64,000 bases of DNA from Flavobacterium supellecticarium (GTDB taxonomy: Bacteria; Bacteroidota; Bacteroidia; Flavobacteriales; Flavobacteriaceae), in the NCBI RefSeq assembly GCF_004801375.1, contig NZ_SSNZ01000001.1, positions 310,001 to 374,000 of the forward strand, read 5' to 3'. A program made the translations under genes and the position numbers. The stretch's first letter is position 1, and the number at the start of each line of letters is the position of its first letter. A model generated the notes under the pieces. That model searched no databases, had not been told where the DNA came from, and saw only the letters and a list, made by a program, of their open reading frames with translations. This document shows, in pieces, positions 17,885-64,000 of the stretch.

Positions 17885-17913
17885 TTGTTTAATTTTAAAT
17901 GTTACACAGTCTT

Positions 17914-35666: not shown

Positions 35667-37259
35667 ATGAAAGAAAACTTCAGAAAAGCATTGGTTAATA
35701 TTGCTCGACATGGAGATACAGATATTTTCCCTTTTCCTTTTGAAAGGCATTTGTTTGAAGAAAAGCAGAATGAAACTTTAGCAATTCTAGAATCTTATCA
35801 TGCAAATATTTATGATGCTATAAGTTCGTCTCCAGTACTTACATTAGTCAAATTAAGTCAGGTTGGGTACTATGGTTTTAGACAAGCAACTCTTATTGAA
35901 CCTTTTTGGAATGCTTATTTTCTTGGGTTAGTTATTTCGATAGCAGAAGATATTGAAAAAAAGAGAATTAAAGAGGAAGACAAGAATATCTATTCGTATC
36001 GTTTCGAATGGGATGAAGCTTCTGGTTCATTATTTAAGAATACAACTTGGATTGACTATAAAAAACAATGTATTGAGAATGCAAAAGAGTACAAATATGT
36101 ATTACAAACGGACATTTCTAATTTTTATCCAAGAATCAATCATCACAAATTAGAAAATGAATTAAAGCGCATTGACACAACTAATTCAGTTACAACAAAT
36201 TTAATGAAACTGCTAAGTGCTTTCACTGGAACAATTTCTTATGGGCTTCCCGTTGGTGGTCCTGCATCAAGAATACTTGCTGAGCTTGCGCTAAATCATT
36301 CTGACTTTAATTTAAAATCCCGAGATATAAAGTTTTGTAGATATGCAGATGACTATACTATCTTTTGTAAAGATGAATCTGAAGCATATAAAACTTTAAT
36401 TTTTCTTTCAGAGAAGCTTTCAAATGACCAACTTGGACTTCAAAAGGATAAAACAAAAATAATGACTTCTGAGGAATTCATAGATATTCATAAATTTTTA
36501 GACCCTCAGCCAAACGATGCAAATCCAGAAGAAGAACAAAAATTACTGAATATATCTATTAGATTTGACCCTTATTCTGCAACAGCAGTTGAAGATTATG
36601 AATATTTAAAAGAAGCAATTAAGGAAATTGATATTATAAGTATACTGTCTAAGGAGGTTAATAAAACTCGTATTGACCAAACAGTTACTAAACAGGCGAT
36701 TAACTCAATAAAAGTATTAAATCCTGAAAGTCAAGTTCAAGCAGTAAAAATATTATTAGACCATAGTAACCTTGTTACTTTGTCTCCTGTTCTTACTTCT
36801 ATTATGCGCTCTGTTAGAAGTATTTATATGGAATTAAGTGATGAAGGGAAAAACATTGTCGATAATTCATTGATTGACTTATTTAAAAATCAAAGCTTCT
36901 TGACAAAGATAGAAATGAATGTTACTTATATGGTTCAAATTTTATCAATTCGTCATTCTGCTGTAAAAGAAACCCTATTTATCAAATTATTTGAAACAGA
37001 GACTAATCATTTTTTAAAAAGGCAAATAATAATTGCAATGTCAAATTGGGGTTGTCATTATTGGATCGTCGATATAAAAAACAATTTTACCGCTCTTACA
37101 AACTGGGAAAGACGTGCTATGATTTATGCATCATATTTTTTAGGAGACGAAGGAAAACATTGGAGAAACCACAATAAAAAATCTTTTAGTAAAGAAGAAA
37201 TTCTAATTAGGGATTGGTTTTCAGATAGAATACAAGCAAATAAAAATATTCTTGTATGA
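35667..37259 (+). CDS. Reverse transcriptase, candidate defence RT
   Basis: 530 aa RNA-directed DNA polymerase. Early region GFRQATLIEPFWNAYFLGL (about 70-88) corresponds to the fingers motifs. Motif A is QTDISNFYPRI (D149), motif B GLPVGGPASRILAE (193-206), motif C RYADDY with catalytic D228/D229, motif D around LGLQKDKTKI. Both catalytic positions are intact. Residues about 330-530 are helical, possibly HEAT-like, with no maturase or endonuclease domain, so this is not a group II intron RT. The architecture fits the abortive-infection/unknown-group RTs of anti-phage systems. It overlaps the next gene by 4 bp (ATGA), so the two proteins are translationally coupled. The exact class is not assignable by eye. 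Confidence 0.88.
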   Translation: MKENFRKALVNIARHGDTDIFPFPFERHLFEEKQNETLAILESYHANIYDAISSSPVLTLVKLSQVGYYGFRQATLIEPFWNAYFLGLVISIAEDIEKKRIKEEDKNIYSYRFEWDEASGSLFKNTTWIDYKKQCIENAKEYKYVLQTDISNFYPRINHHKLENELKRIDTTNSVTTNLMKLLSAFTGTISYGLPVGGPASRILAELALNHSDFNLKSRDIKFCRYADDYTIFCKDESEAYKTLIFLSEKLSNDQLGLQKDKTKIMTSEEFIDIHKFLDPQPNDANPEEEQKLLNISIRFDPYSATAVEDYEYLKEAIKEIDIISILSKEVNKTRIDQTVTKQAINSIKVLNPESQVQAVKILLDHSNLVTLSPVLTSIMRSVRSIYMELSDEGKNIVDNSLIDLFKNQSFLTKIEMNVTYMVQILSIRHSAVKETLFIKLFETETNHFLKRQIIIAMSNWGCHYWIVDIKNNFTALTNWERRAMIYASYFLGDEGKHWRNHNKKSFSKEEILIRDWFSDRIQANKNILV

Positions 37260-37987
37260 TAAGTGAAAGAGAAATAGCTGAAAAATTTACAGTAATTTGG
37301 AAACAGAATTTTCCACTTCTAACGTCTGGCTATATAAGGGTATTTAATGCTACTCAGCTAGAGAGCATTAACTCTAAACCTGTTCCTACAAATGATAATG
37401 TTAGATATGACCTTGTTTCCGAATCTGCGTTCAATCTTTCTAATATTGCAAAATCAGAAAGCTGTACGCCCTCAGAATATTTATCAAATACTTCCAACAA
37501 AGAGAAACTTATAGCAAGTACCGCAAAAAGCATTTGGAAATCTGGGAATTTCAAAAAAGAAGACTTAACTCTATCTAAAGATGAACTAGAAGGTATAGTT
37601 CTTATTTCTAAAAACATATTAGAATTTATCCGAAAGGTTGGAGATAATAATATTATATTTAAACCAAAATTAAAGGGTTATAGCTTCATCCCAGACCTTG
37701 TTGCTGATATTTCAATTGGTGATACGTTATATGAAATAAAAACAGTAAACCGAAATTTTCAATCGAGTGATCTAAAGCAGCTACTCATATATTTAGCTTT
37801 GAAACAAGTCAGTGAACAAACTACTTGGTCATATGCTGGACTTTATAATCCTAGAAAAGGTACATATTGTAGATTCAATGTAAGGAACCTAGTTTATAAT
37901 ATATCTGGAGGAAAAACTCCGAATGAAGCTTTTGAAGGCTTACTAAACGGGCTTGTTAGAGATATAGAAATAGATAGTAAATTTTAA
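37256..37987 (+). CDS. PD-(D/E)XK nuclease-like protein coupled to the RT
   Basis: 243 aa. A C-terminal nuclease core is visible: P146-D147 in FIPDLVADI, E160-I-K162 in LYEIKTVNRNF, and Q175-LLI-Y179, the QxxxY motif typical of RecB/Cas4-like nucleases. The N-terminal half is helical with no recognised domain. Start ATG overlaps the RT stop by 4 bp. Its stoichiometric coupling to an RT and upstream XRE gene suggests it is the effector or processing nuclease of the same system; that role is inference. Confidence 0.8.
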   Translation: MISEREIAEKFTVIWKQNFPLLTSGYIRVFNATQLESINSKPVPTNDNVRYDLVSESAFNLSNIAKSESCTPSEYLSNTSNKEKLIASTAKSIWKSGNFKKEDLTLSKDELEGIVLISKNILEFIRKVGDNNIIFKPKLKGYSFIPDLVADISIGDTLYEIKTVNRNFQSSDLKQLLIYLALKQVSEQTTWSYAGLYNPRKGTYCRFNVRNLVYNISGGKTPNEAFEGLLNGLVRDIEIDSKF

Positions 37988-43485: not shown

Positions 43486-44736
43486 ATGGAAAAGACAAAA
43501 AGATCAACGTTTAAGGTGCTATTCTACCTTAAAAAAAATGCACCAAAAAAAGATGGAACAGTACCGGTAATGTGCCGTGTTACTGTCAATGGAAAGCAGT
43601 CAGCTTTCAGTGCAAAACTGGATATTTCACCGTCCAATTGGGATTTAAAGTTTGGTAGGATTTCTGGGAAAAGTAAACAAGCTCAGTGCCTCAATGCTGA
43701 ACTCGATAGTATTCGTCTGAATCTGGAGCAGTGCCATGCGAAACTATTAAAGGAATCGAGTATGCTGACCAGTGAGAAACTCAAAAACGCCTATCTGGGG
43801 CTTAGCGAAGGCGAAATGACCTTTTTCAAATTCTTTGACCAATACAATGCTGATTTTAAGAAAAAAGTAGCTAACGGGATCAGAAATGCTCATACTTTAC
43901 ACAAATACGAAATACTGCTGCGGCATCTTAGATCCTTTGCAAGAAAAAAGTACGGTTGTTCTGATTTAGGATTTAACGATATTAGCTGTGATCTGGTACA
44001 GGAATTTGATTACTACCTTCGCAACGAGAGAAGTCTGCAACAAAACAGTGTCTGGTTATACATGATCGCTTTTACAACAGTATGTCGTCTGGCAATCAGC
44101 AGAAAGTACCTTATCTTTAATCCTTTTTCCGAGTATAAAAATACAAAAGAGGATAAAGATCGTGGCTATCTTTTGCGCAACGAACTGGAAGAAATAATAG
44201 GTTACAAATGTGTAAAACGTCGCCATATACTGATTAAAGATTTATTTTTGTTCAGTTGCTTCACAGGGCTGAGTTATTCAGATATAAAGCGTTTAGAATA
44301 CAGTCACATCCAAGAGTTCTTTGATGGCAATAAATGGATTATCATACGTAGAAAGAAGACTACAACATCCTCAAACGTGATGCTACTGCCTATGCCGAAA
44401 ATGATCATAGAAAAATATACCGGATTGAGCAGAAACGGCAAGTTATTTCCTGTACCATGTAATAAAACCTGTAATCATTTCTTAAAAGCACTATCCGAGG
44501 GAATCCCTTGTTTAAGGGGGAAAAAAATCACATTCCATTTAGCCCGACACACCTTCGGAACACTGTTTTTGAGTGAGGGGGTTCCGCTAGAAAGTCTGAG
44601 TAAAATGATGGGGCACAAGAACATTGCTACGACACAGATTTACGCAAAAGTTCTTAACGAAAAGGTTGGAAAGGATATGCAACAGGTAGCGCACAGATTT
44701 GAGACAATGGAACGCGCATTTGTACCTACCCTTTAA
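43486..44736 (+). CDS. Tyrosine-type site-specific integrase of the ICE
   Basis: 416 aa. An Arm-type N-terminal domain (FKVLFYLKKNAPKKDGTVPVMCRVTVNGK) is followed by a SAM-like core-binding domain (about 110-200) and a catalytic domain with FTGLSYSDIKRLEYSH (first Arg region), HLARHTFGTLFLSEG (HxxR) and the terminal tyrosine in TTQIYAKVLNEKVG. It matches the integrases of Bacteroidota conjugative transposons. It integrates and, with excisionase, excises the element. It is transcribed toward the transfer operon. Confidence 0.92.
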   Translation: MEKTKRSTFKVLFYLKKNAPKKDGTVPVMCRVTVNGKQSAFSAKLDISPSNWDLKFGRISGKSKQAQCLNAELDSIRLNLEQCHAKLLKESSMLTSEKLKNAYLGLSEGEMTFFKFFDQYNADFKKKVANGIRNAHTLHKYEILLRHLRSFARKKYGCSDLGFNDISCDLVQEFDYYLRNERSLQQNSVWLYMIAFTTVCRLAISRKYLIFNPFSEYKNTKEDKDRGYLLRNELEEIIGYKCVKRRHILIKDLFLFSCFTGLSYSDIKRLEYSHIQEFFDGNKWIIIRRKKTTTSSNVMLLPMPKMIIEKYTGLSRNGKLFPVPCNKTCNHFLKALSEGIPCLRGKKITFHLARHTFGTLFLSEGVPLESLSKMMGHKNIATTQIYAKVLNEKVGKDMQQVAHRFETMERAFVPTL

Positions 44737-46011: not shown

Positions 46012-47076
46012 CTAATTTAATTTCATGCCGTTACGCCTTTTTGTGTTTTGCAACTTATTATCTTGCTGCATATCCACCTTCTTTGCCGTTTTTAGGGCTT
46101 CAGAAACATCTCCTTCCTTCAATGAGTTCAGTGTTATTTTTTTTGAATGTTCATCATAGATATTCAATGTTCTAAACTGTGGGTTTGCTTCAATGTAGAA
46201 ACGCTTTTCATTTCCGTCTTTAAGAAAAGAAACTTCCTGTATACCACCTCGCTTTAAGGCGGCTTTGATATCCTCCCTTTCCGTGTAATTCAATCCATCC
46301 TTAATCGGTAGCTCATTTAATGCCTTATCAAGGTCGTAACCATACATATTACCAAACTCCTTAACCCGGTACTCTCCCTTAGTATTCACATCATTTAGAT
46401 CTAATTGCAACCAACTATCACCCTTTTTGATTGCTCTACCGGACAATAGATGATAAGCTTCCGATTCTCTAATATTTTTTGAGGTGTCAACAGAAAAAAA
46501 ATGTTCCCGTATTTCTGCTGGCTTCTTATTATTTATTAAAGCAGTTCGGTGTCCTTCAAATTGATACTGACCCGTATTATCTTTCTCAAATTTTAGTTTA
46601 TGATCTAATCTTTCGTTCTCATTCACATAGGTACTAAGTTCAATGTTGAACTGAGGACTGCCATTTTTAAGATGACTATCAATTTTTTCAATGGGCATTT
46701 TAAATCCTAACTGATTGATTTGATCCAACAAACGAGCCTTTTGTACCGTCAGATCCCGGGTACCTTCCTTTCTACGAACCTGTTGTCTTAAAGGAACCAC
46801 AACCCAACGCCGAAACAAACGGAGAATCCGGCTGGAATACAATTGCTTTTCGATTCTTCTACGCTCATCTTTCATTAAACGCAGCGCAAACTTCTCATCG
46901 AGATTTTTTGTGCCTGTATAAGTAGCGGCCACACGGTCAAAGTAACGTAGTTTCTCCCGCAACAACGTTTTATTACTTCCCATATTTGTTGAGAAAATGC
47001 TACTATATCTGTCTTCTCGTTTGTTCCATTCTGCAATCGCAGCTTCGACCCTGTTTGCTCCTAGTTGGTTTTCCAT
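46012..47076 (-). CDS. ICE protein with DUF3945-like domain (1)
   Basis: 354 aa. N-terminal basic helical region (about 1-130) then a domain (about 205-315) that shares order and motifs with the 461-aa neighbour: AYHLLSGRAIKKG, YGYDLDKALNELPIKD, FYIEANPQFRTLNIYDEHSK. I take this as the DUF3945-type module of Bacteroidota conjugative elements. A start site SD (AGGAGGG at 47084-47090) lies 7 bp upstream, unlike chromosomal genes. Function unknown; DNA-transfer or stability role suspected. Confidence 0.7.
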   Translation of the reverse strand: MENQLGANRVEAAIAEWNKREDRYSSIFSTNMGSNKTLLREKLRYFDRVAATYTGTKNLDEKFALRLMKDERRRIEKQLYSSRILRLFRRWVVVPLRQQVRRKEGTRDLTVQKARLLDQINQLGFKMPIEKIDSHLKNGSPQFNIELSTYVNENERLDHKLKFEKDNTGQYQFEGHRTALINNKKPAEIREHFFSVDTSKNIRESEAYHLLSGRAIKKGDSWLQLDLNDVNTKGEYRVKEFGNMYGYDLDKALNELPIKDGLNYTEREDIKAALKRGGIQEVSFLKDGNEKRFYIEANPQFRTLNIYDEHSKKITLNSLKEGDVSEALKTAKKVDMQQDNKLQNTKRRNGMKLN

Positions 47077-47099
47077 GACTTCACCCTCCTCTTACCTTC

Positions 47100-48485
47100 T
47101 TAAATAGATTTTGACTTGCCCCTTCTCTTTTTTTGCTCAGGCACATCGGGCGCCTCTATCTCTGCTGCCTGCGATTGCTTTTCAGCGTGAGATTTTGCCG
47201 ATTCTTTAGCATTTTTACCTGTATCTCCCACCTCCTTACTTGCATCCACATGATTGTTTATGGAATCATTCGTAACGCCTTGCGATTCTGGTTCTACAAC
47301 ATTTATGTCATTAATCGTTGTTCCTTCCGGAACTACTTTGTTTGTAGACTCCACAGTTTCCGGAGCTGGGCTACTTTCGCTTTGTCCAACCGAAGTTTCC
47401 GCTTTTGTATCTTCCCGCTCTCCCGCACCTGTTTGGACTGCTTCTCCTTCTGTATTGCTTTGAGCCTGTCCAGTGGATCGGTTAGCTCCAACTTTCTTAC
47501 CACCGACATCATATACATTTATGTTTTTAAATTGTGGATTTGCGGTTATGAACCTTTCCACTTCTGAGTCCCCTTTTTTAAACGTAGCAACAGCAACATT
47601 ACCTCTTTTCAACGAAGACAATAAGTTAGCTTTAAGCTCATCAATTTCAAGTTCTTTAATCGGAAATCTACCTAGCGCGGATTCCAGATCATACCCATAA
47701 TTATCGTTAAACTGTTTGAGTTTGAAATTCCCGGAGTTATCTGTCTGTTTAAAATCAAGTTCAATCCAGGCACTATACGCATTACCGTCTTTTGTCGAGA
47801 GCTTTTTATAAACCGATCTGCCCGAAAGTAGATTATAGGCTTCTTTAAGCGTTATATTATTCTTCTTGTTGATGTAAAAAGTCTGATTGGTACTTTTTTC
47901 CTCTTTTTGCTTTTGAAGGTTGACCTCATAAGAATTAAAGAAATACATATCACTTTCTTTGCTTTTACTGAAATTCAAATTGACTGATACGGAGTCTTTT
48001 CCAAACTCTTTATCATAGGGAATGGCAAATTTTTCGGGCGTATTTTCAACCTCTTTTGCTATTTTATCTGTAAGCTCATCACCGAACCCGGTGAACTTAA
48101 CTTGCTCCTGTAGATATTCTAAATTACTCATATTCATAGTTTCCTTTTCTTGTTTTACATATAGTGTTTCGTTTAGAAAAAGCTTATAATCTAGTGCAGC
48201 AATATCTACCACACCATCTACCGCCGGAGCCAAATCTGGCTGTTCGAGTGCAGTTTCAATCAGACTGCACAAGCTCTTGACACTCCATGCATGTAAAGAT
48301 TCTTCGGCAATATCCGATTGGTTATCATATCCATACTGAAGACAATCCCATTCGTTTTTTAAAACTTCCAATTTCCGGATAGTGGAAATCGGAAATGCTG
48401 ACTCACCGATATAGTAGAATTTATTACTTAACAACCCCTTCAGCTCATCCCGAACACTTTCTAAACTTTCTAAATAAATTTTCAT
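47100..48485 (-). CDS. ICE protein with DUF3945-like domain (2) and acidic/basic tail
   Basis: 461 aa. Residues 1-115 are unassigned, 120-340 carry the same module as the 354-aa protein (AYNLLSGRSVYKK, YGYDLESALGRFPIKE, FITANPQFKNINVYDVGGKK), and the last 120 residues are a low-complexity Glu/Ser/Thr/Asn-rich tail ending KKRRGKSKSI. Gene order right after traN suggests co-expression with the transfer apparatus. Function unknown. Confidence 0.7.
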   Translation of the reverse strand: MKIYLESLESVRDELKGLLSNKFYYIGESAFPISTIRKLEVLKNEWDCLQYGYDNQSDIAEESLHAWSVKSLCSLIETALEQPDLAPAVDGVVDIAALDYKLFLNETLYVKQEKETMNMSNLEYLQEQVKFTGFGDELTDKIAKEVENTPEKFAIPYDKEFGKDSVSVNLNFSKSKESDMYFFNSYEVNLQKQKEEKSTNQTFYINKKNNITLKEAYNLLSGRSVYKKLSTKDGNAYSAWIELDFKQTDNSGNFKLKQFNDNYGYDLESALGRFPIKELEIDELKANLLSSLKRGNVAVATFKKGDSEVERFITANPQFKNINVYDVGGKKVGANRSTGQAQSNTEGEAVQTGAGEREDTKAETSVGQSESSPAPETVESTNKVVPEGTTINDINVVEPESQGVTNDSINNHVDASKEVGDTGKNAKESAKSHAEKQSQAAEIEAPDVPEQKKRRGKSKSI

Positions 48486-52867: not shown

Positions 52868-53497
52868 CTAGTGATTAATTCCGTAAATCCTTGCTATGGT
52901 CTGTGCATCTTTACGTTCTTTTGCACGTTGCAGCGCCAATACACCCGTCTTATTATTGAAATGGCGTAAAAACAGGATTTTTTGTTCCATTTCATTGTAA
53001 ATCCCATCTATCGCCTTTAATCGTTCGTCATCACTCATCCTCATCTTACCGGAAGTGATGACGTTGGTCAGCTCATCAAGATTCATTATACTTTCTTTTA
53101 AAAGATTGTTGTAGACGGTAGCCAAATACTCAATTTCGTTAGCCGTAAAATTTTGATCGTTTCGGAACCGTTCATATGCGCCGCGATACTCATTAACCAA
53201 TGTTACTTGATAACTGACGATCTCCCCGACCTTTCTATAGTTTCTTACGGTCGGGCTTACCTGCATTAAGCCATCAAGAAAAGCTTGATGCAGTTTGAAA
53301 TTACCCTGAGAGATTCCCTTTATCGTATTATATCCTCCTGACAAGGCTTCATAGCCCTTTTTCATGTTGCTTAAAATCTGCTTGAATTGAGCAAGTTTTT
53401 CAATATTTAATGCCAACTGCATACTTTCTTGAACCTGTCCCTGTGTTCTGGTTATCCCGATGCTGATCAGGAATAACACTACTAATACTTTTTTCAT
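52868..53497 (-). CDS. TraI-like protein, third copy
   Basis: 209 aa with signal peptide (ends near RTQG). Shares with the two neighbouring TraI-like proteins the core NFTANEIEYLATVYNNLL, MSDDERLKAIDGI, and LFLRHFNN...LALQRAKERKD near the C-terminus. VirB5-like periplasmic/pilus-associated function is assumed by analogy. 2 bp from the middle copy. Confidence 0.8.
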   Translation of the reverse strand: MKKVLVVLFLISIGITRTQGQVQESMQLALNIEKLAQFKQILSNMKKGYEALSGGYNTIKGISQGNFKLHQAFLDGLMQVSPTVRNYRKVGEIVSYQVTLVNEYRGAYERFRNDQNFTANEIEYLATVYNNLLKESIMNLDELTNVITSGKMRMSDDERLKAIDGIYNEMEQKILFLRHFNNKTGVLALQRAKERKDAQTIARIYGINH

Positions 53498-53499
53498 AG

Positions 53500-54147
53500 C
53501 TATCTGTTTAAACCTTGTTGAATCCGACTACGCTCTACTTCCCTTTTCTCCTTTAGCCGGGCAATGGCGAGCAGCTTATTTTCCGCGGAGAAACTTTCGC
53601 AGAACATAAATTTCTCCTGCATATCCTGATGTATCTTGTCGATACGTTCAATACGTTCCTCATCTTTCATTTCCAGTTTGTGATCTGTTATTACGCTTAT
53701 AAGTTCATCGAGCGTTTTTTCACAATCAGTAATAAGTCGGGAATACACCTCATTTATACTCCTTTTTTCTTCATCCGATAGCACATCATTGAAAAGTAAT
53801 TCGCCTCTTGATATGTTATATCGGTTAATGATCCGTCTTTGCAACTGCATTATAGTAGAGACCTTCGGGTGCGTCCTAATTTTGGGGTTTACCAGTTTTA
53901 AAGACTCGAAATAGTCACCGTGAATATCAAATTCTCCTTTGGATAGGTCACCGACTGTTTTTAAACCTTTCTTTGCTATGTTGTAACCATCTTTTGTGTA
54001 TTTGATATAAACCTGCAGTGCCGCGATCTGTTGAAGTAGATACTTCGTTTGGGTTGACTTTTGGTTAAACCATTCATCCCAGGTCTGTGCTTTTAAGCCA
54101 CTCCAAGTGAGTAAAAGCGCAATCAACATGATTAAATTCCTTTTCAT
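53500..54147 (-). CDS. TraI-like protein, second copy
   Basis: 215 aa with signal peptide (ends near LKAQ). Core motifs LLFNDVLSDEEKRSINEVYSRL, MKDEERIERIDKIHQDMQEK and LLAIARLKEKRE parallel the other two copies. Separated from the first copy by a 142-aa gene of unknown function. Confidence 0.8.
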   Translation of the reverse strand: MKRNLIMLIALLLTWSGLKAQTWDEWFNQKSTQTKYLLQQIAALQVYIKYTKDGYNIAKKGLKTVGDLSKGEFDIHGDYFESLKLVNPKIRTHPKVSTIMQLQRRIINRYNISRGELLFNDVLSDEEKRSINEVYSRLITDCEKTLDELISVITDHKLEMKDEERIERIDKIHQDMQEKFMFCESFSAENKLLAIARLKEKREVERSRIQQGLNR

Positions 54148-54149
54148 AC

Positions 54150-54578
54150 TTAAAATTTGAATCTTTTACTTTTTATATTTCTAGGATTTTCAACTTTCTG
54201 AATAACTTCTTCACAAGTGGGTAACGTTGCTGTAGTAAGATTCTTTAGCTCAACATTTCTTATCCAAATACCCGCATTTCGATAAACTAAGTTCATCCCA
54301 TATATCTCAAATTTTCCAATTATACCGGGTTCATACTTCACAAACATGCAACCGCATATACTTTCTTTGTCGTCTCCTTCAAACTTGAGATAGGTAGCTA
54401 ACCTAAGCTCCTCCTTTAGCCCATCTTCCAGACCTAACAGAGAATCATACAAATACTGTTTCACACTTTTCTCAAGAGTTTCACTGTAACAAGCATTGGT
54501 TTGAAATGCTTTAGTATCATAACCCTTTCCTTCAAGTTCATCGACCAAATTTTTCAATGCCTTTTCGATCCTTTCCAT
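54150..54578 (-). CDS. Hypothetical protein within the transfer operon
   Basis: 142 aa without signal peptide or membrane segment; a soluble, mixed-charge protein (CMFVKYEPGIIGKFEIYGMNLVYRNAG region). I do not recognise the family. It sits between two TraI-like genes, overlapping neither (2 and 7 bp gaps), an unusual position for an insertion into the conserved tra order. Could be an immunity or regulatory accessory gene. Confidence 0.65.
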   Translation of the reverse strand: MERIEKALKNLVDELEGKGYDTKAFQTNACYSETLEKSVKQYLYDSLLGLEDGLKEELRLATYLKFEGDDKESICGCMFVKYEPGIIGKFEIYGMNLVYRNAGIWIRNVELKNLTTATLPTCEEVIQKVENPRNIKSKRFKF

Positions 54579-54585
54579 AATAGTC

Positions 54586-55287
54586 CTATTGTTGAATTCC
54601 GTAATATCTTTTTACACTTTCGATCTCAGATAGTGATTTTGACCGCTGTACACTCAACAGAATATTTTGGTTATTAAACTGGCGTAAACGATTATAACTT
54701 TTATCGATCTGATTGGAAGCTTCGTTGATAAGCTCCAATCTTTTTGCATCACTCATTTTTGTGGTAAAGGACTGTACGATCAAACTGATATGATCAATGT
54801 TCTGTAAGCTCTCGCCAAGTATGCCGGAGTTCACGTCCTCCATATAGTCCAATTCATCTGCTGTAAAATTGGCATCCTGTCTTAACAGATTCCAGAGCCG
54901 CCCGTATTCCTGTACCATCAAACCTTGCTTTTCTACGACATCCCTGATCCGCTGATAATAGCTGATGATACTTTTTACTTTGGTCAGTTCTTCATAATAG
55001 CTTTCATATTGCTTTTTCTGTTTATCCGTCCATTCTCCGATCTCCTTCAGCTTTAGCTTTGTTAATGTGTTTTCTAATGTCTTCTGTGCATTTTGCAACC
55101 AGATAACTTTGTTCTGCGCACGCTGGATTTTAAGATCAATGGCTTTAATAGCTTTATTGATCGCAGAAGTAACTAAACTAAAAATACCCAACGCCGCCGT
55201 TGCTCCCTGTACCGGTTGTACCGGAACCATCACCGTTGCCATCATTAAGCTGATGATCAACATTTTTATATACTTTCTCATACGCAT
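54586..55287 (-). CDS. traI: TraI-like conjugal transfer protein, first copy
   Basis: 233 aa from ATG 55287; a GTG at 55302 is in frame but overlaps traG and has no room for a ribosome site. Signal peptide (ends near VQGA), long helical/coiled-coil middle, then the shared core NFTADELDYMEDVNSGIL, MSDAKRLELINEA, LRQFNNQNILLSVQRSKSL. DUF4141/TraI position directly after traG is conserved. Confidence 0.82.
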   Translation of the reverse strand: MRMRKYIKMLIISLMMATVMVPVQPVQGATAALGIFSLVTSAINKAIKAIDLKIQRAQNKVIWLQNAQKTLENTLTKLKLKEIGEWTDKQKKQYESYYEELTKVKSIISYYQRIRDVVEKQGLMVQEYGRLWNLLRQDANFTADELDYMEDVNSGILGESLQNIDHISLIVQSFTTKMSDAKRLELINEASNQIDKSYNRLRQFNNQNILLSVQRSKSLSEIESVKRYYGIQQ

Positions 55288-55291
55288 AATT

Positions 55292-57775
55292 TTAAATTTC
55301 ACTCCTTAAATCATCCGCCATTGCTTTAATACCTTTAACCAGATCCCCTCCAAACTTGTCGGCATACTGCATTAGCTTGACCTTCTCCGTCTGTTCGGTC
55401 GTATATACCAGATACTCCTCCAGACTAACCTCGGTACGATAAACTTTGGATAGGACGCCACCAAGAGAGATAAAAACCTCTTTATACTTTTTCAAGGGAT
55501 CGTTCGCCTTATTAACGGATAGCACCTGCGCCTTTTCTTTCTCGGTCAAGCCTAACAGTTCCTGGATCTGGTCAAACTTGTTCTGGTATTTAGATTGATC
55601 AAGTAGAATTTTACAATCGGAGTTATTAATAATTGCCTGTTTTACCACAGGGGAAGAAATGATATCTTCGACTTCTTGCGTCACGACGATAGCTTCACCG
55701 AAGAATTTTCGAACTGTTTTAAACAGGTATTTAATATACTCCGCGAACCCCTCTTTCATTAAGGCTTTCCAAGCCTCTTCAATCAGGATCATTTTGCGAA
55801 TCCCTTTCATTTTTCGCATTTTGTTGATGAATACCTCCATTATTATAATGGTGACAGTCGGAAAAAGAATAGGATGATCTTTAATGTTATCCAACTCAAA
55901 AACGATAAATCGCTCTTGAAGGAGATTCAGGTTTTCGGTAGCATTTAATAGGTAATCAAATTCTCCGCCTTTATAGTACGGTCGGAGTACATACAGAAAA
56001 TTGTTAACATCAAAATCCTTTTCCTTTACTTTATCATCGGTTAACACTCCGACGTAATGTTCACGCAGAAAATCATAAAAGGTATTAAAACAGGGAAATA
56101 CATCTGTATTACTTTCCAGATAGGCATAATATCCGCCAATGGCATTGGACATAGCCACGTACTCCGATCGTTTAAATTCTTCGTCGTCTTTTTTCCATAA
56201 TGCAAGTAACAAAGTCTTGATACTTTCTTTTTTCTCTGTATCCAGGCTATCTCCTTCACCGATGTAGAATGGATTAAACCGGATTGGATTTTCTTCACTG
56301 TATGTGAAGTAGTACCCCTTAACCATATCACACAGACCTTTGTAAGAGTGACCAACATCAACCAATACAATATGCGTCCCCTGTTCATAGTAACTACGCA
56401 CCATATGATTTGTAAAGAAAGACTTGCCGCTACCGGAAGGACCGAGAATAAACTTGTTGCGGTTGGTGCATATACCCATCTTCATCGGCTCATCTGAAAT
56501 GTCAACATGAACAGGCTTTCCGGTCAGCCTATCTCCTAGCCTTATTCCCATCGGGCTGATCGAAGAGCGGTAACCAGTTTCGAGGTTCAGAAAACAGGTA
56601 GCTTGTTCCGCGAAAGTGTCGAACGTATCATTCATGGGGAAGTCGGCAGCATTGCCGGGAATTCCCGCCCAATATATCTGTGGTGCCCCAACGGTCTCCT
56701 GTTTAACAACAGCATCCATCTGTGCAAGAGCCGAAGAAACTTTATTTTTCAGTTCTTTCAATTCTTCCTTCTCATCACTCCATACCAATACATTAAAGTG
56801 TGCTTTTACGGGTAGCCGTTGCTGACTGATGGCTTCATTTAAAAAATCATTGGTAGCATCCCTGGCAATACTGTTTTCCCGGCTATAAGCCGACAGTGAC
56901 TGTAACCGCAAACGCTTACTTTCCAGCTTTTGCAATGTTTTCGCTGAATCTTCGATAAAGATGTACTGGCTATATACATGGTTGCATGGAAGTAATTGCC
57001 CCAATGTACTGGCAAATCCGATACTGAACTTTGTTCGGTCGGTGGAGTATTTATCATAGTTTATCCGGCTACCACATAAAGAGGGAAGATCGGCGGCATC
57101 TGCAAGTGTAAAGAGCTGTGCGGTTTGTCCTCCGACACGGATACCATCACTAAAACCAATGTCTTTAATAAAGATGGATTCCCTATCCGATGTAAGATTG
57201 CAATACCGTTCAATTAGTCCGACATTTCTTTTACCGCTTCTGAAATCTGATTCTGTAAGGCGTCTTAACTTGACAAAGCCACTTTCTTCTAAAATATGTT
57301 TGAACTGACCGCAGGAATCAACAAAATCCTGTAGATGATTTATATTCAGGTTTTCGTCGGGAACTATCGTCTTTCGGATCAGATTCGAAAACATCGAATT
57401 ACCTACTTTTCTATCTTTTGGTTTCTTTGTCAGAAAGATGTAACAACTATGATCCAGAAACGGACGTTCGTTAAAGAAACGATCACTGCTTCTCGATAAA
57501 AAACTGATATCATCTGCCGTAAAATCCGGTTTATATTTGGTGTCTAAAAACCAATCCTGCTTATACAATACAGTAAACTTTGGAAGTACCTTGATTGCCT
57601 TTATCCAGATTTGGTGAAACGCTTCATATTCATTATTTGACAATGTGAAAATTTCCGGTAGTTCTACCCGAAACCCAATTGTCATGTCTCCCTGTTTGCT
57701 TAATATACAATCATGCTCAATGCCCATGATCGGCATAATATCATCTATCCACTTCTCCATCGCACTTTCTCCCAT
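55292..57775 (-). CDS. traG: TraG-family conjugation ATPase (VirB4-like)
   Basis: 827 aa. Walker A GPSGSGKSF at about residues 443-451 and Walker B region MILIEEAWKALMKEG at about 660-675; N-terminal VirB4 domain before. Energises assembly of the secretion channel at the inner membrane. Size and motifs match TraG of Bacteroidota conjugative transposons. Named traG in this nomenclature, not the VirD4-type coupling protein. Confidence 0.92.
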   Translation of the reverse strand: MGESAMEKWIDDIMPIMGIEHDCILSKQGDMTIGFRVELPEIFTLSNNEYEAFHQIWIKAIKVLPKFTVLYKQDWFLDTKYKPDFTADDISFLSRSSDRFFNERPFLDHSCYIFLTKKPKDRKVGNSMFSNLIRKTIVPDENLNINHLQDFVDSCGQFKHILEESGFVKLRRLTESDFRSGKRNVGLIERYCNLTSDRESIFIKDIGFSDGIRVGGQTAQLFTLADAADLPSLCGSRINYDKYSTDRTKFSIGFASTLGQLLPCNHVYSQYIFIEDSAKTLQKLESKRLRLQSLSAYSRENSIARDATNDFLNEAISQQRLPVKAHFNVLVWSDEKEELKELKNKVSSALAQMDAVVKQETVGAPQIYWAGIPGNAADFPMNDTFDTFAEQATCFLNLETGYRSSISPMGIRLGDRLTGKPVHVDISDEPMKMGICTNRNKFILGPSGSGKSFFTNHMVRSYYEQGTHIVLVDVGHSYKGLCDMVKGYYFTYSEENPIRFNPFYIGEGDSLDTEKKESIKTLLLALWKKDDEEFKRSEYVAMSNAIGGYYAYLESNTDVFPCFNTFYDFLREHYVGVLTDDKVKEKDFDVNNFLYVLRPYYKGGEFDYLLNATENLNLLQERFIVFELDNIKDHPILFPTVTIIIMEVFINKMRKMKGIRKMILIEEAWKALMKEGFAEYIKYLFKTVRKFFGEAIVVTQEVEDIISSPVVKQAIINNSDCKILLDQSKYQNKFDQIQELLGLTEKEKAQVLSVNKANDPLKKYKEVFISLGGVLSKVYRTEVSLEEYLVYTTEQTEKVKLMQYADKFGGDLVKGIKAMADDLRSEI

Positions 57776-57811: not shown

Positions 57812-58468
57812 TCAAATGCTTTTTCCCTTTTTGCGTTGTCTCAACTCTATCTCACTCCCGTCTCTAACTTCTTGATTGATCTTTTGATTTTCTGCGGAGT
57901 GTAAATCTCTATATTGTCCGATCTGCAATCCCGCACGATAACCTTTAAGCATCCGGCAAGCAATCTCCCTATAAAACTTCTTTCTATCTTGATCCGTCTC
58001 GTTCAGAATATGATGTCGAACAATCTGACTGGCAATAAGCTTTGCCTCAAATGGTTCTTCAATCCGGTAAAGTTCTCCCGTTAATTGGTCCTTAAAAACA
58101 AGCGCCAAACAGAATTGCCCGTCCGACCGCCTATGTACAGGCTTTTGCATAGCAATTCCTATTTTAGATTCACCCTGTCTATCACACGCTCCAAAAATTT
58201 TGTCCCGGACCGATTTATTAATAACAATATCAACTGTTCTGTCATGCGGGTCGATAATGCGGCCAAATTGCAATCGGTCTTCATCCGGAAAAGGGAATCG
58301 GAACAAAAAACCTTGTTCTACCTGAAGGTAGATAGGTGTAAATGTTCGCTCACGAATACTGTTTTTTTCCCGCTCGTAATCCACATATTTATCGTAACTA
58401 ACATAGTATAAACTCTCGCAGGTCCCAATCTTTACATCCTGTCCTCGATACTTTACGTATTCTCCCAT
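57812..58468 (-). CDS. Hypothetical ICE protein (MGEYVKYRGQDVKIG type)
   Basis: 218 aa, soluble. The start MGEYVKYRGQDVKIGTCESLYY is like that of other uncharacterised proteins I associate with Bacteroidota conjugative elements. Ends with a basic RQRKKGKSI tail. First of three such genes between DUF4133 and traG-side genes. Function unknown. Confidence 0.65.
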   Translation of the reverse strand: MGEYVKYRGQDVKIGTCESLYYVSYDKYVDYEREKNSIRERTFTPIYLQVEQGFLFRFPFPDEDRLQFGRIIDPHDRTVDIVINKSVRDKIFGACDRQGESKIGIAMQKPVHRRSDGQFCLALVFKDQLTGELYRIEEPFEAKLIASQIVRHHILNETDQDRKKFYREIACRMLKGYRAGLQIGQYRDLHSAENQKINQEVRDGSEIELRQRKKGKSI

Positions 58469-58502: not shown

Positions 58503-59111
58503 TTACTTTCTACGCCCCCGTCGTCCCCTTTTCGGTTCTTTCTTAATTTTTTTTTGGCTATCATCCTTTTGTGAGGGGTTATTTTCGGCTTTAGCTGTAG
58601 CTTCACGCATCGACTTCTCTTCGGCGTCAATCTGTGCCTCTACCTCAGATTCAATTTCAGCAAGTAGTTCCTTTACACGGTTTCGTTCAGCAATCGTAAT
58701 TAGGTTGGTCATCGTTAACGGAATTGCTTCTGCTACAATTCGTTCCGACATCGGATTGTCTTTTACGAACTTCTTTTCATCGATTCCATATTCTCTTGCT
58801 ACACCAACAGGGTCAAGCTGCAATCCACCGGGTATTTTTACGATCATAACGTCTTTGGGAAGCATCGTCAGCTTCATATCCAGATCAACAAACTTCTTTT
58901 CGACTGTGTTATAGTAAAAAAAATAGATGTCTGCATAAAAGTTTCGCTTTCGCTCCGATAAGACAAGCGGCGCTACATCGATACAATCTTTAGCGCGCAA
59001 AACGCGCTCCCGCCAATCCACAACATATACCTGACCCGGTAATTCAATTTCAGGCAGAACGCCCTTTCTTCGTAATTGATAAAGTCTCTCTTGCTCATCA
59101 CTTAATTTCAT
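58503..59111 (-). CDS. Hypothetical ICE protein with repeated-domain module, short form
   Basis: 202 aa. Residues about 15-140 match the C-terminal part of the 383-aa neighbour: LPEIELPGQVYVVDWRER...FYYNTVEKKFVDLD...MLPKDVMIVKIPGG...LDPVGVAREYGID. A Lys/Arg-rich C-terminal tail (KKEPKRGRRGRRK) suggests nucleic acid contact. An SD (GGGAGG at 59116-59121) lies 4 bp before the ATG. Family unknown. Confidence 0.68.
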   Translation of the reverse strand: MKLSDEQERLYQLRRKGVLPEIELPGQVYVVDWRERVLRAKDCIDVAPLVLSERKRNFYADIYFFYYNTVEKKFVDLDMKLTMLPKDVMIVKIPGGLQLDPVGVAREYGIDEKKFVKDNPMSERIVAEAIPLTMTNLITIAERNRVKELLAEIESEVEAQIDAEEKSMREATAKAENNPSQKDDSQKKIKKEPKRGRRGRRK

Positions 59112-59189
59112 TTTTCCTCCCGCACTAAACTTCCACTAATAGAACGAAACGCTCGCTATCATTTCCTTAAATTCCTGTATTGATCAACC

Positions 59190-60341
59190 TTAGTAGCTCT
59201 GTCCCTTATTTCGCGTGGTTTTCAAAGCTGCATTTTTATCAAGCTGATCTTTTTGCGCTATCACTGGATTATTATTCTTGACCAGTCTTGAATAGGGTGT
59301 CTTTTCTATCGGGATAATCCGAGCTTCCGTCTTTGGCTGATAAGGATACCTATCAAGCAGATAATAAGGATCGCCATAGATTTCACGTCCCTCACCTATA
59401 GGATCTAGTGTTTCGATATCGGGAATAACAATCATTACAGAATGCTTAGGAAGTTCCTTTAAATCCCCATTGTCCGGTATTATCTTTCTGTTCAGATAAT
59501 CATAGAGAAAGACAAACTTGTTATCGTATTCATCATTACCGCGACCACCCGTATCTTTCAATTCTATTTTTTTCCAGAACTTGTTGGACGATCTCAATTC
59601 CCTTAACCGGGTATCCACATAGTAATCTTCATCAACAATCCGGATAACAGGTAGCTTTCCTCCCTTAATTCTTTCTTCCACATAGTCTGGGTTAGACCGG
59701 ATTTTCCAATCCTTTTTAGGTAGCTTTTCTACCGGAATACCATAGACTCTGGAAACTTCTTCGGGAACCTGTTTAACCAGGTGTTTAATTTTGACCAAGG
59801 TTGCCTTTTTATCATCCGTATCAATTATTTTCCCATTTTCGTCGATAAAAAAACCGTATTTTCCCTTGTAGGGTTCGAGTCCATTAAGATCAATAAATAC
59901 AAGCGGTTCATCTTTTTTCCGTATCTCACGTAATGAAACATCAATCTCATACTGAAAGCCATTTTTCTCAATAGTTGGGAGTTCCCGGATCGTGCACGGC
60001 ATAGGCATATTTTCAAGTTCCACCAATGCCTGCTTATCAAGCAATTTTACGCCATAGCTTTTGCCCAGCTTTTTATTAAAATTTTCAGCATAAGCAGATC
60101 CTTCGCCATAGCCCTCTTCAAAACATATCTTAGGAATCTTAACGGATGGCATCTTTGTATTTTCATTTTCAACAAGAAGCCCCGTTTTAGGATCAATCTT
60201 TACCGCATAGTAATTGTCATATTCTACCATGTCATCGATTGATATGATATTATCCGGATTACCAACCTGAATCAGCTCCTCAAATGTCGTATCAATACGA
60301 TACATATGTTCTCCAATAAAACAACGTTCTTCTTCTCTCAC
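59190..60341 (-). CDS. Hypothetical ICE protein with repeated-domain module, long form
   Basis: 383 aa starting at GTG 60341, supported by an AGGAGG site (60348-60353) 6 bp upstream; an ATG 12 codons later lacks one. Contains at least two copies of a module: one at about 115-215 (NGFQYEIDVSLREIRKKDEP...FFIDENGKIIDTD...VSRVYGIPVEKLP) and one at about 235-335 (LPVIRIVDEDYYVDTRLREL...DYLNRKIIPDN...LPKHSVMIVIPDIETLDPIG). The 202-aa gene product carries the same module once. Novel family to me. Confidence 0.68.
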   Translation of the reverse strand: MREEERCFIGEHMYRIDTTFEELIQVGNPDNIISIDDMVEYDNYYAVKIDPKTGLLVENENTKMPSVKIPKICFEEGYGEGSAYAENFNKKLGKSYGVKLLDKQALVELENMPMPCTIRELPTIEKNGFQYEIDVSLREIRKKDEPLVFIDLNGLEPYKGKYGFFIDENGKIIDTDDKKATLVKIKHLVKQVPEEVSRVYGIPVEKLPKKDWKIRSNPDYVEERIKGGKLPVIRIVDEDYYVDTRLRELRSSNKFWKKIELKDTGGRGNDEYDNKFVFLYDYLNRKIIPDNGDLKELPKHSVMIVIPDIETLDPIGEGREIYGDPYYLLDRYPYQPKTEARIIPIEKTPYSRLVKNNNPVIAQKDQLDKNAALKTTRNKGQSY

Positions 60342-60374: not shown

Positions 60375-60707
60375 TCACTTTTTCCTTTCCTTGCCAAATG
60401 CCTGAAAAACATTTCTGCTATTACATTTCACAACTTTGGGCACCTGCTTTCGCGCAAGCGCTTTCATCAAACCATGCTCTCCGTACTTATGGCTCATCTT
60501 GTATATTTTCATAACCAGCAATGTGCCACATCCTCCGATTAGGATCAGACAAACAACGGTGGGTAAACCTATGATATACATTACTGAATACAGTATCAGT
60601 AATCCCACAACGCCGCCGCCCAAATACCAGATATATTGTGCCTTTAAGCCCTTAAATTCGATGCTCTGGTTAATCCCTTTATTTATTTTGTAAACACTAT
60701 TTGACAT
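60375..60707 (-). CDS. TraF-like (DUF4133) conjugative transfer protein
   Basis: 110 aa. Two adjacent membrane helices (about 28-70: YIWYLGGGVVGLLILYSVMYIIG then LPTVVCLILIGGCGTLLVM) after FKGLKAQY, the DUF4133/TraF signature. VirB3-like inner-membrane component. The expected TraE (DUF4134) partner is not seen next to it in this window. Confidence 0.85.
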   Translation of the reverse strand: MSNSVYKINKGINQSIEFKGLKAQYIWYLGGGVVGLLILYSVMYIIGLPTVVCLILIGGCGTLLVMKIYKMSHKYGEHGLMKALARKQVPKVVKCNSRNVFQAFGKERKK

Positions 60708-60716
60708 ATTGTAATT

Positions 60717-63700
60717 TTATATTCTCATACCACTGTTTCTCTGACGCGAAGCCTGTATTACCACCGGTTCCAGTGTCTCCCCTTTTTCAGCCTGATGCTG
60801 TTCGTTTGGTCCAATGACAGCTGTCTCTTCGACCATCTCACCTTCGTTTAATCTATTTTCTTTGATTTTGAGCGATATTTCCCGCTCAAGACTACTCAAT
60901 TCGATTCTAAGCGCCTGTAATTCCTCTTCCTGTGAAAAACCCAGGGAACACAATTCCTCTAATCTTGGAATATTAGCGGAATGCTCCCTTATTTGTCGAT
61001 CATATGTGTACAGTAATCCGTCAATTCGTTCCAGCGCATTTAGGAAATAGCGCGCCGCAAGCTTTTCATTATTTGCATTAGGAAATCCTTGATTCGAGGT
61101 ATATTTTATGCCGTCATTCCTTTGAACATAAAGATTATGACTGTAACCGTAGGCAATTTTTCCGTTATACTCATGTGTCTCGTTAATCCTACGGATATAA
61201 AGATCAAAACCATAAAGCGTACCAATTTTCTGCTCTGTTTCTCCCTCTTTGGGTTTCCAATTTTTGAATAGATCAAGAAGATGTCTACCTATTAGATCCG
61301 GTTGCGTAGATGGGCAACCGATCAGTTTTACAGGATTAGCCTTTGTACCGTCATTTTCGTAATACAAGTTTTTTTCATAAACCAAATAGTCTTCTTTTAA
61401 CCGACTATAAGTGGCAGTATCTTTTTCCAGTTCATGGATAGTCGATTGCAAAAGATTCTTATTCACAAAAGCTTCACGAAAATGACTCGCTTTCAAGCTT
61501 TCCAAAACAGCTATTTTCTTTTGTAGCTTCGTCTTTTCAAGTAATGAGGTATCTCCGGACAGGATTGCGATATACTCCGCAAAATTCATCCCGGACTGTT
61601 CATCCAAAGCGCCTTCGTCGATCGTTCTTACGTTTAGCTCGCAGTTCTTCATCTGAGAAATGAAGGTCTGCTTATTCTTTAATAAGTTAAACTTATAGTT
61701 GTCCAGACTCTGTTCTACGGCATAGTAATAGGTCCTCACTTTGTTATCACGATACTGCTTCGCCGCCCAGTTTCCTTGCCTGCTTCCTCGGCCGTTTCGT
61801 TGCTCTAAGTCTTTGGGAGTCCACGGTATATCAACATGGTGCATGGCAATGACCCGCTGTTGCACATTAAGCCCTGTACCGGCTTTTTCCGTGCTACCAA
61901 TGAGAATACGAATCTCCCCATCGTTCATTTTTTTGAACAGATTCGAACGCTTCCAACCCACCCAGTTATTATCGTGAATGAACGTCACTTCATGCTCAGG
62001 TATGTCAAAGTCCCTGACAAGCTTGGTTTTCAACTCGTCATAAAGATTGAATTGATCAGACTTGGGCGTACCAATATCTGAGAATACAATCTGTGTACCT
62101 TTAAATGGTGTACTGTCGTGATACTCGGCAACAACCTGGCGGGCTATGTAATTGATCTTATTTTCGGGATGGTCGCAATAAACTATCTCATTAATTAACC
62201 GCATATCGGCCGACATTTTCTTAGCGTAGTTGGTTGCAATCAACATACGCGCTTTATCCTCGGCCTGACTTAACTGTCCTCTTCCGATCAATACGCCATC
62301 CCCTGTTTTAGCAAACTCTATTAAATTTTCAATAAACACCTGCTGTTCGGGTGTCGGTTTAATATTGATCAGTTTTTCATCTAGTTCCGGCTTATCAAGG
62401 CTAATGTGTTTTGCTGTCTTGTAGTCCGTAATCAGATTGTACAACAAAGCAAGTTCAGGGACTTTAATAAAATGCCGGAACCGCTCCTTTGCGATAATCT
62501 CATTCGTAACCGAGAACTCAAAATCTGTAGATTTTTTTGCATACACAGCGGCCCATCCATCAAAGTTTTCAATCCCGAGGCGCTCCATTTCGCGCGGTAT
62601 AAAATATTTAAAGATCAGGTACTCCTCCGTTAGACTATTTGAAATTGGTGTACCCGTCAGGAAAGTCACACAGATATCTGCATTGTACCGTAATTGTAAA
62701 GTTCTTACGGCAAACAACATATTAAGCGCTTTTTGACTCCCTTCCACATTACCCAGCCCCGCCACACGACTATGCCGAGTAGTAAAGGTTAGATTCTTAA
62801 ACTTATGGCTTTCATCCACAAACATATGGTCAAGTCCCATATCATTGAAGGTGATGCCGCTGTCTTTCTTTTTCTCAATATTAAACCGTACGGCTCTCAA
62901 TTTTCCGATAAGGTTCTTTTTTCGGATCTCAAGACCTTTGAGCACTTTCTTTGAAATATCCCCTCCTTCCTTCTGGGCTGTATCCAGATCCCGCTCGACA
63001 TTTTCGAGTTCCACATTAAAGATCTGTTGCTGAATTTCGGGAGACTGCGGTATCTTCCCGAATTGATCGTGCGTCAATATCACACAGTCCCAATCATTAT
63101 TTTTTATTTCGTGCAATAACCTAACTCGGTTCCGTGGTTCAAAGTCCTTTTCACTTGGAAACAACAATTTACCTGATGGATAAGCCTTTTTATAAGTGTC
63201 GGCAATATCACCCACGTTAGCCTTTAGCGCAAGTATGATAGGCTTTTGGATAATGCCAAACCTTTTCATTTCCATACCTGCAACTATCATTGTCAGTGTT
63301 TTGCCCAATCCCACTTCGTGGTCGATCAACGCCCCGCGATTTTGGATGATACGCCAGATGGCATTTTTTTGAGATACATAGAGATCTTCGATACCCAGTC
63401 CTTTTTTATCTAAGCCCGGAAATGTAAGGTGACTCCCATCGTACTCACGCAGCACATAACAATTATAAGTATCGTTGTATAGCTTTTCGATTTCTCTTTT
63501 ATCCACTTCGGGTAATGCCATCATCCAGCTAACAAAGCCATTCCGCATCACCTCTATCTTCTGATGTGCCAACTGGATCAGTTCATTGTCGGGAACACGG
63601 ATTTTTTTACCGTCCTTCTCTACTTCGTATGTAAAGAACGGAGCAGTGTTTTCCAGTGCATGCTCAAATAATGTATAGCCATACACTTTACTACCTCTAT

Positions 63701-64000
63701 CATTGACAATCGCGTATTCCCGATCCACTTTAATGTTATGGCTAACGGAAACTTTGAAACTGTCCAGTGACGGGAAATAGCGAACTTTTGTATCGCTATC
63801 GAAAAATTCTGTTCCGAAGCGGCTGTAGTATTTCTGTGGTATCCACCGCTCTCCCATGTTAAAATCCAGTAGTTCAAATGGAATACGTTCGGGCTGGATC
63901 GCAACAATTGCATCATAACTACGCTGATATTGTAAATTACCCGCACTACGGTCAATAGCAGCTTCTGCCTTCACCATTTTCTCCACCACATTACCACTTA
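60717..64000 (-). CDS. SNF2-type helicase of the ICE (5' end beyond window)
   Basis: At least 1094 aa visible; the frame is open to the window edge, so the apparent start at 63989 (GTG) is not real. Helicase motifs: I at VGLGKTLTM (about residue 220 of the visible part), II at [10 protein letters not shown] (about 390), III region [14 protein letters not shown], and VI at [11 protein letters not shown] (about 730). C-terminal part with coiled coil and basic end. In related ICE proteins the missing N-terminus often carries an N6-adenine methylase domain, as in the anti-restriction DarB-like proteins; here this cannot be seen. Confidence 0.8.

What the first reader, a model, noticed from the sequence alone, without database searches (positions are those of the whole stretch)
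58503..60341. Repeated-domain proteins of unknown family between TraF and TraG
Seen: a 383-aa protein with at least two copies of a module (YxxDxxLRE, a central F-N/D-K-I segment, then LPK-VMIV-P and LDPxG) and a 202-aa neighbour carrying one copy. Expansion of an unknown domain within a conserved transfer operon suggests an adaptor or substrate-recognition role.
Basis: partly seen in the sequence, partly recalled or inferred. Interest (0 to 1): 0.6.

Follow-up and report, generated by a model that had tools for sequence, protein, structure and literature searches.

The report
Repeat proteins carried by conjugation operons
Two neighbouring genes inside a bacterial DNA-transfer operon encode an undescribed family of repeated-module proteins whose tail end resembles an export tag, so they may be proteins that a mobile element sends into the new host cell together with its DNA.

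Summary
The 383-aa protein (A) has three copies of a ~100-residue module, the 202-aa protein (B) one. No Pfam, NCBIfam, PHROGs or PADLOC family matches at its cut-off; no solved fold was found. Relatives occur at 55 loci in named Bacteroidota records; 54 have the gene beside CTnDOT-type transfer genes, mostly between TraC and TraE, sometimes between TraF and TraG, with 1-4 modules per ORF. The gene is optional: none of 12 operons picked by TraF carries it. No member has a membrane-like segment. A variable linker ends in a conserved basic tag, (K/R)-G-(R/K)-(K/R)-(M/I/L), in 43 of 59 family ORFs (B yes, A no) and in 0 of 593 background chromosomal ORFs. The same tag ends unrelated accessory proteins of such elements (DUF4099/DUF3945 and KfrB-like proteins); looser versions end a DarB-like methylase-helicase and three more proteins of this element. 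Best reading: effectors that the type IV secretion system carries into the recipient, the tail being the export signal. Translocation is inferred, not shown.

The parts
59190..60341 (-). Protein A, 383 aa: three modules, then a tail
60120..60326 (-). A module 1 (residues 6-74), the most diverged copy
59715..59981 (-). A module 2 (residues 121-209)
59352..59654 (-). A module 3 (residues 230-330), closest to the module of B
59193..59225 (-). A C-terminal tail (ends RNKGQSY): at best a weak form of the tag, missed by both tail patterns
58503..59111 (-). Protein B, 202 aa: one module, long helix, basic tail
58761..59057 (-). B module (residues 19-117)
   Evidence: AF2 pLDDT about 91-97 in blocks of ten over this stretch
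58506..58535 (-). B C-terminal basic tail (ends KRGRRGRRK)
57812..58468 (-). 218-aa neighbour, not a module copy, but ends RQRKKGKSI; no relative in the 149 other genomes of a 150-genome genus sample
60717..64000 (-). DarB-like methylase-SNF2 helicase, 1835 aa from its ATG, continuing beyond the window end; ends RQRNSGMRI (looser tag only)
   Evidence: filed as DarB-like by the domain order described in PMC5512222
47100..48485 (-). 461-aa accessory protein with tail KKRRGKSKSI (looser tag); paralogue of the next gene (31% over 214 aa)
46012..47076 (-). 354-aa accessory protein with tail KRRNGMKLN (looser tag); its relative in another element (L189, 357 aa, 48% over 353 aa) ends KKNGMRLG
60375..60707 (-). 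TraF (DUF4133), upstream border of the slot
55292..57775 (-). TraG (VirB4-type ATPase), downstream border of the slot

Best explanation
A and B belong to an undescribed family of soluble, optional accessory proteins of CTnDOT-type conjugative elements of Bacteroidota. One to four copies of a ~100-residue beta-rich module are followed by a variable linker and, in most members, a conserved basic C-terminal tag. Most likely they are made in the donor with the transfer machine, recognised at the tag by the element's coupling protein (MobC), and carried through the type IV secretion system into the recipient, where the modules bind a recipient or DNA target and help the incoming element to establish itself (counter-defence or DNA protection). 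Shown: the repeats, the family, the lack of membrane segments, its place and optional presence in the operon, the tag and its presence on unrelated accessory proteins. Inferred: recognition by MobC, translocation, and action in the recipient. The target of the module is unknown.
For: Position: of 55 loci found by profile, 42 read TraC>family>TraE among classified genes, 8 TraC>family with nothing classified after it, 3 family>TraE, 1 TraF>family>TraG, 1 has no family ORF of 60 aa or more; L034 (TraF>family>TraG) and the window are of the TraF-TraG kind too. Optional: 0 of 12 TraF-picked operons have it. Soluble: 0 of 60 members over 150 aa have a 19-residue stretch over 1.6 on the Kyte-Doolittle scale. 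Tag: 43 of 59 family ORFs (distinct by their last 40 residues) match the strict pattern, against 0.2 expected from shuffled tails. Background: 0 of 326 chromosomal ORFs outside the window and 0 of 46 in it and, with the pattern frozen, 0 of 221 of another genome. 0 of 499 rows of TraA, B, C, E, F, G, I, J, K, M, MobA and MobC match. Over 33 diverged members positions -1 to -5 have 1.5-2.3 bits of entropy, positions -8 to -40 3.0-3.8 bits. Other strict bearers: DUF3945-type proteins 6 of 17 rows, fragments and weak hits included; of 10 rows unseen when the pattern was set 3 match, two of these being 90% identical (domains); the KfrB-like small proteins L035 and L052, 53% identical. The relaxase, the protein known to be carried with the DNA in conjugation, also ends strongly basic (47 of 50 with net charge 5 or more in the last 14 residues). 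C-terminal clusters of positive or hydrophobic residues are known T4SS signals (PMC3297438, passage; PMC11288057, passages), and an F plasmid translocates several of its own proteins (PMC8406263, abstract and passages).
Against: No translocation data. A itself ends RNKGQSY and misses the pattern. 16 of 59 family ORFs miss the strict pattern: some are fragments, five are the L036-L038 group of another type of element, others are full-length. The strict pattern was written after looking at family tails and at some DUF3945 tails. The wider pattern, under which 5 of 70 ORFs of the window's element match, was enlarged after seeing those tails, so its Fisher P values (9e-5; 8e-7 for the transfer part) are descriptive only, and two of the five are paralogues. 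DarB-like rows match the strict pattern in 0 of 26 cases. Basic charge alone is not specific: 6 of 41 TraF rows, 8 of 21 rows of a 142-aa tra-operon protein and 26 of 678 unclassified rows also have net charge 5 or more, as do 6 of 326 background ORFs; only 26 of 59 family ORFs do. Relaxases have no strict tag (0 of 50), so the tag is not the relaxase's own signal. Basic tails also bind nucleic acid, and DUF3945 and DarB-like proteins plausibly act on DNA. For four F-system substrates with positively charged C termini truncation had no significant effect (PMC11288057, passage). The fold gives no function.
Confidence: 0.45

Rival explanations
1. The family is an accessory part or adaptor of the secretion machine, for example a cytosolic factor that tunes TraG, TraC or the coupling protein in certain elements.
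For: Encoded beside TraC/TraE or TraF/TraG in 54 of 55 loci, and without membrane segments, so it could dock on the cytosolic ATPases.
Against: Absent from 12 of 12 TraF-picked operons, variable slot and 1-4 modules, two or more genes or fragments in 8 of 55 loci; shares its tail with proteins that are not machine parts.
Confidence: 0.25
2. The basic tail is a nucleic-acid binding tail and the family works in the donor on DNA processing (relaxosome, topoisomerase partner) without being exported.
For: Other tail bearers include proteins with Toprim_Crpt/DUF3945 domains; 1 of 5 topoisomerase rows has the strict tail.
Against: The tag is a short, position-fixed motif at the extreme C terminus after a variable linker, not only a basic composition; shuffled tails of the same composition give 0.2 matches against 43.
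Confidence: 0.15
3. The genes are cargo that merely uses an insertion-tolerant spot of the operon, with a function in the host cell (defence, entry exclusion or regulation) unrelated to transfer.
For: The TraC-TraE interval also holds unrelated inserts in L015, L016, L019, L035 and L115; two slots are used.
Against: 54 of 55 loci have it in the transfer operon and the distant copies L036-L038 still lie by a coupling-protein gene, though the scan was by family profile and cannot exclude other places; no PADLOC family beyond one single-member weak hit; the tail is shared with transfer-associated proteins.
Confidence: 0.15

Closest known systems
Polyvalent proteins and single-domain relatives of conjugative elements (Iyer et al. 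2017, PMC5512222; abstract and passages seen)
   Same: Proteins of variable module number coded beside T4SS genes of conjugative elements, here next to a methylase-helicase of the DarB type; some relatives are fused to another domain (KfrB-like N-terminal part in L057-L060, L062, L080; Api92-like ferredoxin domain in L036).
   Different: The module matches no Pfam model (as I recall, Pfam holds many of that paper's LPD domains); no enzymatic domain was seen fused to it; the large multi-domain architectures that define the class were not seen.
DUF4099/DUF3945 proteins of Bacteroidota conjugative elements
   Same: Accessory proteins of the same kind of element with similar C-terminal tags (SKGRKM, SRGMKM, KKGRKI).
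   Different: The bodies show no detected similarity to the module family; two that were scanned carry topoisomerase C-terminal repeat, DUF3945 and DUF4099 domains.
T4SS substrates with basic C-terminal signals (VirB/D4 type; PMC3297438 passage)
   Same: Short, positively charged C-terminal signal on otherwise unrelated proteins.
   Different: Here a defined K-G-R-K-M-like ending at the last residue; translocation not tested.
CTnDOT-type TraA-TraQ operon (nomenclature recalled)
   Same: Gene order TraA-B-C-[family]-E-F-G of the host operon.
   Different: The family gene is not part of the core: 7 of 12 TraF-picked operons, one of them from the window's own genus sample (L110), go from TraC to TraE with no family gene.

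Membership tests
Core component of the CTnDOT-type T4SS | Present in essentially every operon of the type | tested here: not met
   0 of 12 TraF-picked operons
Core component of the CTnDOT-type T4SS | Coded within the tra operon | tested here: met
   54 of 55 loci next to TraC, TraE, TraF or TraG
T4SS-translocated substrate with C-terminal signal | C-terminal basic/hydrophobic signal | tested here: met
   43 of 59 strict, B included, A not; background 0 of 593
T4SS-translocated substrate with C-terminal signal | Transfer into recipient shown by reporter | not testable with these tools
   needs Cre or similar reporter assay
Polyvalent proteins (PMC5512222) | Contains one or more of the domains catalogued there | tested here: inconclusive
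   no Pfam match for 32 members at E 0.01; weak KfrB match (E 0.0025, 18.2 bits against a cut-off of 25) for the stand-alone relative of a fused N-terminal part; DUF1281_C in one L036 protein at 23.3 bits against 22.8. Neither name occurs in that paper's main text, and its domain alignments were not available
Polyvalent proteins (PMC5512222) | Coded beside conjugation or phage packaging genes | tested here: met
WWE domain | WWE fold | tested here: inconclusive
   recurrent but insignificant Foldseek rows (E 1.6 or worse); not listed among rows of Z 2 or more; no Pfam match
Any Pfam, NCBIfam, PHROGs or PADLOC family | Match over the curated cut-off, or consistent matches among members | tested here: not met
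   only single-member hits, the strongest TIGR01784 for B at 20.6 bits against a cut-off of 52.1

The most novel reading that the evidence does not exclude
Conjugative elements of Bacteroidota mark a whole set of unrelated proteins (this module family, DUF4099/DUF3945 proteins, KfrB-like proteins, DarB-like methylase-helicases) with one short C-terminal export tag, so that the type IV secretion system delivers an anti-defence and establishment kit with the DNA; the module family, with its changing number of repeats, is a new kind of member of that kit.
Probability: 0.35. Interest if true: 0.8.

Novelty: new variant of a known kind. Interest (0 to 1): 0.55.

Why it matters
CTnDOT-type elements spread genes through Bacteroidota. 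I saw nothing on proteins that they deliver with the DNA in the search listings (listings only; most subscription papers are not held). A readable C-terminal tag would let one predict such proteins from sequence and test them with a simple reporter, and this family would be a first set of candidates.

Tried and rejected
Known family: Pfam and NCBIfam with A and B, all four libraries with 32 members, PDB sequences with A and with the 32-member profile gave no curated match; isolated weak hits (Siah-Interact_N, CcdB, Rpn transposase, Cmr5, two PHROGs, an adenosylhomocysteinase, a P450) are single-member or insignificant.

Fold: AF2 models of A (mean pLDDT 74.8) and B (89.5). Foldseek against PDB (A, B) and the viral library (B only) had no match at E 0.001 or better. 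VIA-align's best was Z 3.9 over 42 residues of B's long helix and Z 2.8 for A. WWE-like rows recur but are insignificant; I do not use them. A missing match does not show a new fold.

Plasmids: A, B and one typical relative had no tblastn match in 72,556 plasmid records. Viral contigs: no relative of B (A was not tried). Element ends: only exact repeats of 13-14 bases were found between the integrase side and the stretch beyond the relaxase, so no att site is claimed. ARAGORN found no tRNA in the window or L023.

Considered and dropped: charge of the tail as the criterion (not specific); the looser pattern as a statistical test (fitted after the fact).

Full report
What is there. The window is part of contig C1 (310001-374000) of an unnamed 3.85-Mb genome. 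An integrase-like gene at 43486-44736 (by eye) precedes a minus-strand transfer operon whose TraG and TraF are recognised by curated models; the names TraA-TraC, TraE and TraI-TraM are given by position and recalled CTnDOT nomenclature. The relaxase (PF03432) and coupling protein (PF02534) lie about 49 kb beyond the window's end (L023).

The repeats. A (383 aa) holds three modules and B (202 aa) one; statistics are in the observation check. TraF, A, B, the 218-aa gene and TraG follow one another with gaps of 33, 78, 34 and 36 bases on one strand, so they are probably one transcript (inference).

The family. B finds relatives in 7 of 150 genomes of the genus, its own included; A alone finds only itself and B in 299 genomes of the family; a profile of eight sequences, A and B among them, finds matches in 5 of 395 genomes of the class, own included. 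A scan of named genomes gives 55 loci: Flavobacterium, other Flavobacteriaceae, Chryseobacterium, Epilithonimonas, Paenimyroides, Pedobacter, Pelobium, Sphingobacterium, Chitinophagaceae, unclassified Bacteroidetes bins and one Massilibacteroides contig. Among 64 distinct ORFs from all loci, fragments included, 15 have one module, 31 two, 13 three and 5 four. The gene stands in the TraC-TraE interval (42 of 55 with both neighbours classified) or, in the operon type to which the window belongs (TraE, DarB-like gene, TraF, TraG; also L034 and L051), between TraF and TraG. L034 shows the simplest form there: TraF, one 271-aa two-module gene, TraG. The window's element has the enlarged form: A with an extra N-terminal module, B, and the 218-aa gene.

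Not a core gene. I took 12 operons from eight other genomes by TraF. None has a family ORF at E 0.001; seven run from TraC to TraE with no family gene between, the other five have no TraC in the stretch. A machine part would hardly be absent so often. Inserts of other kinds in the same interval show that it accepts cargo.

The tail. In the window, L021-L023 and seven compared loci, ORFs whose last 14 residues carry net charge 5 or more are relaxases, family members, a few accessory proteins, one 145-aa tra-operon protein and two ordinary ORFs of the window left of the element. Charge alone is therefore not specific. The motif is: among 1327 ORFs made distinct by their last 40 residues, the strict ending matches 43 of 59 family members, the 218-aa gene (1 of 1), 7 of 678 unclassified ORFs and 0 of 589 rows classified as Tra, Mob, relaxase, helicase or the two small tra-operon proteins. 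Of the seven, two are KfrB-like proteins (L035, L052; 53% identical), three are DUF4099/DUF3945-type proteins (L109, L110, L111; related to each other and to L112), one is a topoisomerase and one an L036 protein. Background: 0 of 372 and, with the pattern frozen, 0 of 221; the looser pattern meets 0 of 372 and 1 of 221. Of 10 DUF3945 rows fetched after the strict pattern was set, 3 match (L140, L144, L148, the last two 90% identical), two are near misses (SKGRKVS, SKGMRV), five do not fit and include fragments. With frozen patterns, three element regions (177 ORFs, those of the known loci L035, L034 and L110 included) gave one new hit, by the looser pattern: a 357-aa protein 48% identical to the window's 354-aa protein, ending KKNGMRLG where that ends KRRNGMKLN. 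In the window's element five of 70 ORFs fit the looser pattern: B, the 218-aa gene, the DarB-like gene, and the paralogous 461- and 354-aa genes; A does not. That pattern was enlarged after these tails were seen.

Why an exported effector. T4SS signals of this simple sort are known, though the same review warns that such simplicity is probably not general (PMC3297438, passage), and F-type plasmids send several of their own proteins into recipients (PMC8406263, abstract and passages). The neighbour upstream is a methylase-helicase of DarB type; PMC5512222 (passages) describes DarB as a virion component that protects injected DNA and lists such dyads in conjugative elements. It is therefore reasonable that the optional, soluble, tag-bearing family beside it is delivered too. 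What the module binds is not known; the fold searches are silent.

Limits. ORF sets for counts are greedy choices of long ORFs, not curated annotation. Loci found by the family cannot prove that it never occurs elsewhere: the scan used two conserved peptide stretches, and L036-L038 show more distant copies beside another coupling-protein gene. Literature: over the held open-access library; nothing on this family or on the tail was seen in their listings, but most subscription papers are not held.

Noticed in passing
window 60717-64000, continuing to L021 about 4224: The 'helicase' ORF is cut by the window end: read on, it is a 1835-aa methylase-SNF2 protein (motif NIPFG, start motif GFGG) of the DarB type, an antirestriction protein class.
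   Followed up: partly
window 52868-55302: Three related TraI-like genes (209, 215, 238 aa; 20-31% identical), with a 142-aa gene between the last two, where L020 has one.
   Followed up: partly
L036 9241-12476, L037 9730-10644, L038 9433-9984: Distant module genes in another type of element, three in L036, one of them with an Api92-like half (DUF1281_C), beside a different coupling-protein gene.
   Followed up: partly
L035 11605-12006; N-termini in L057-L060, L062, L080: A small KfrB-like protein exists alone and fused in front of the module family; the stand-alone forms L035 and L052 and the fused forms end in the same tag.
   Followed up: partly
L050 and L090: The family protein of a Massilibacteroides vaginae contig is identical to that of Sphingobacterium psychroaquaticum: recent transfer or contamination.
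   Followed up: partly
window 46012-48485: Two paralogous accessory genes (354 and 461 aa), the shorter one with a faint match to DUF3945-type proteins (E 3e-4 in a small set).
   Followed up: partly
window 35667-37259 and 37256-37987: A reverse transcriptase-like protein (YADD, by eye) overlapping a 243-aa gene downstream, perhaps a defence reverse transcriptase system.
   Followed up: no
window 17899-19109: A transposase-like gene apparently split into two ORFs (267 and 124 aa).
   Followed up: no
L016 2509-7901: A cluster of five genes of unknown role inserted between TraE and the family gene, probably cargo or defence.
   Followed up: no
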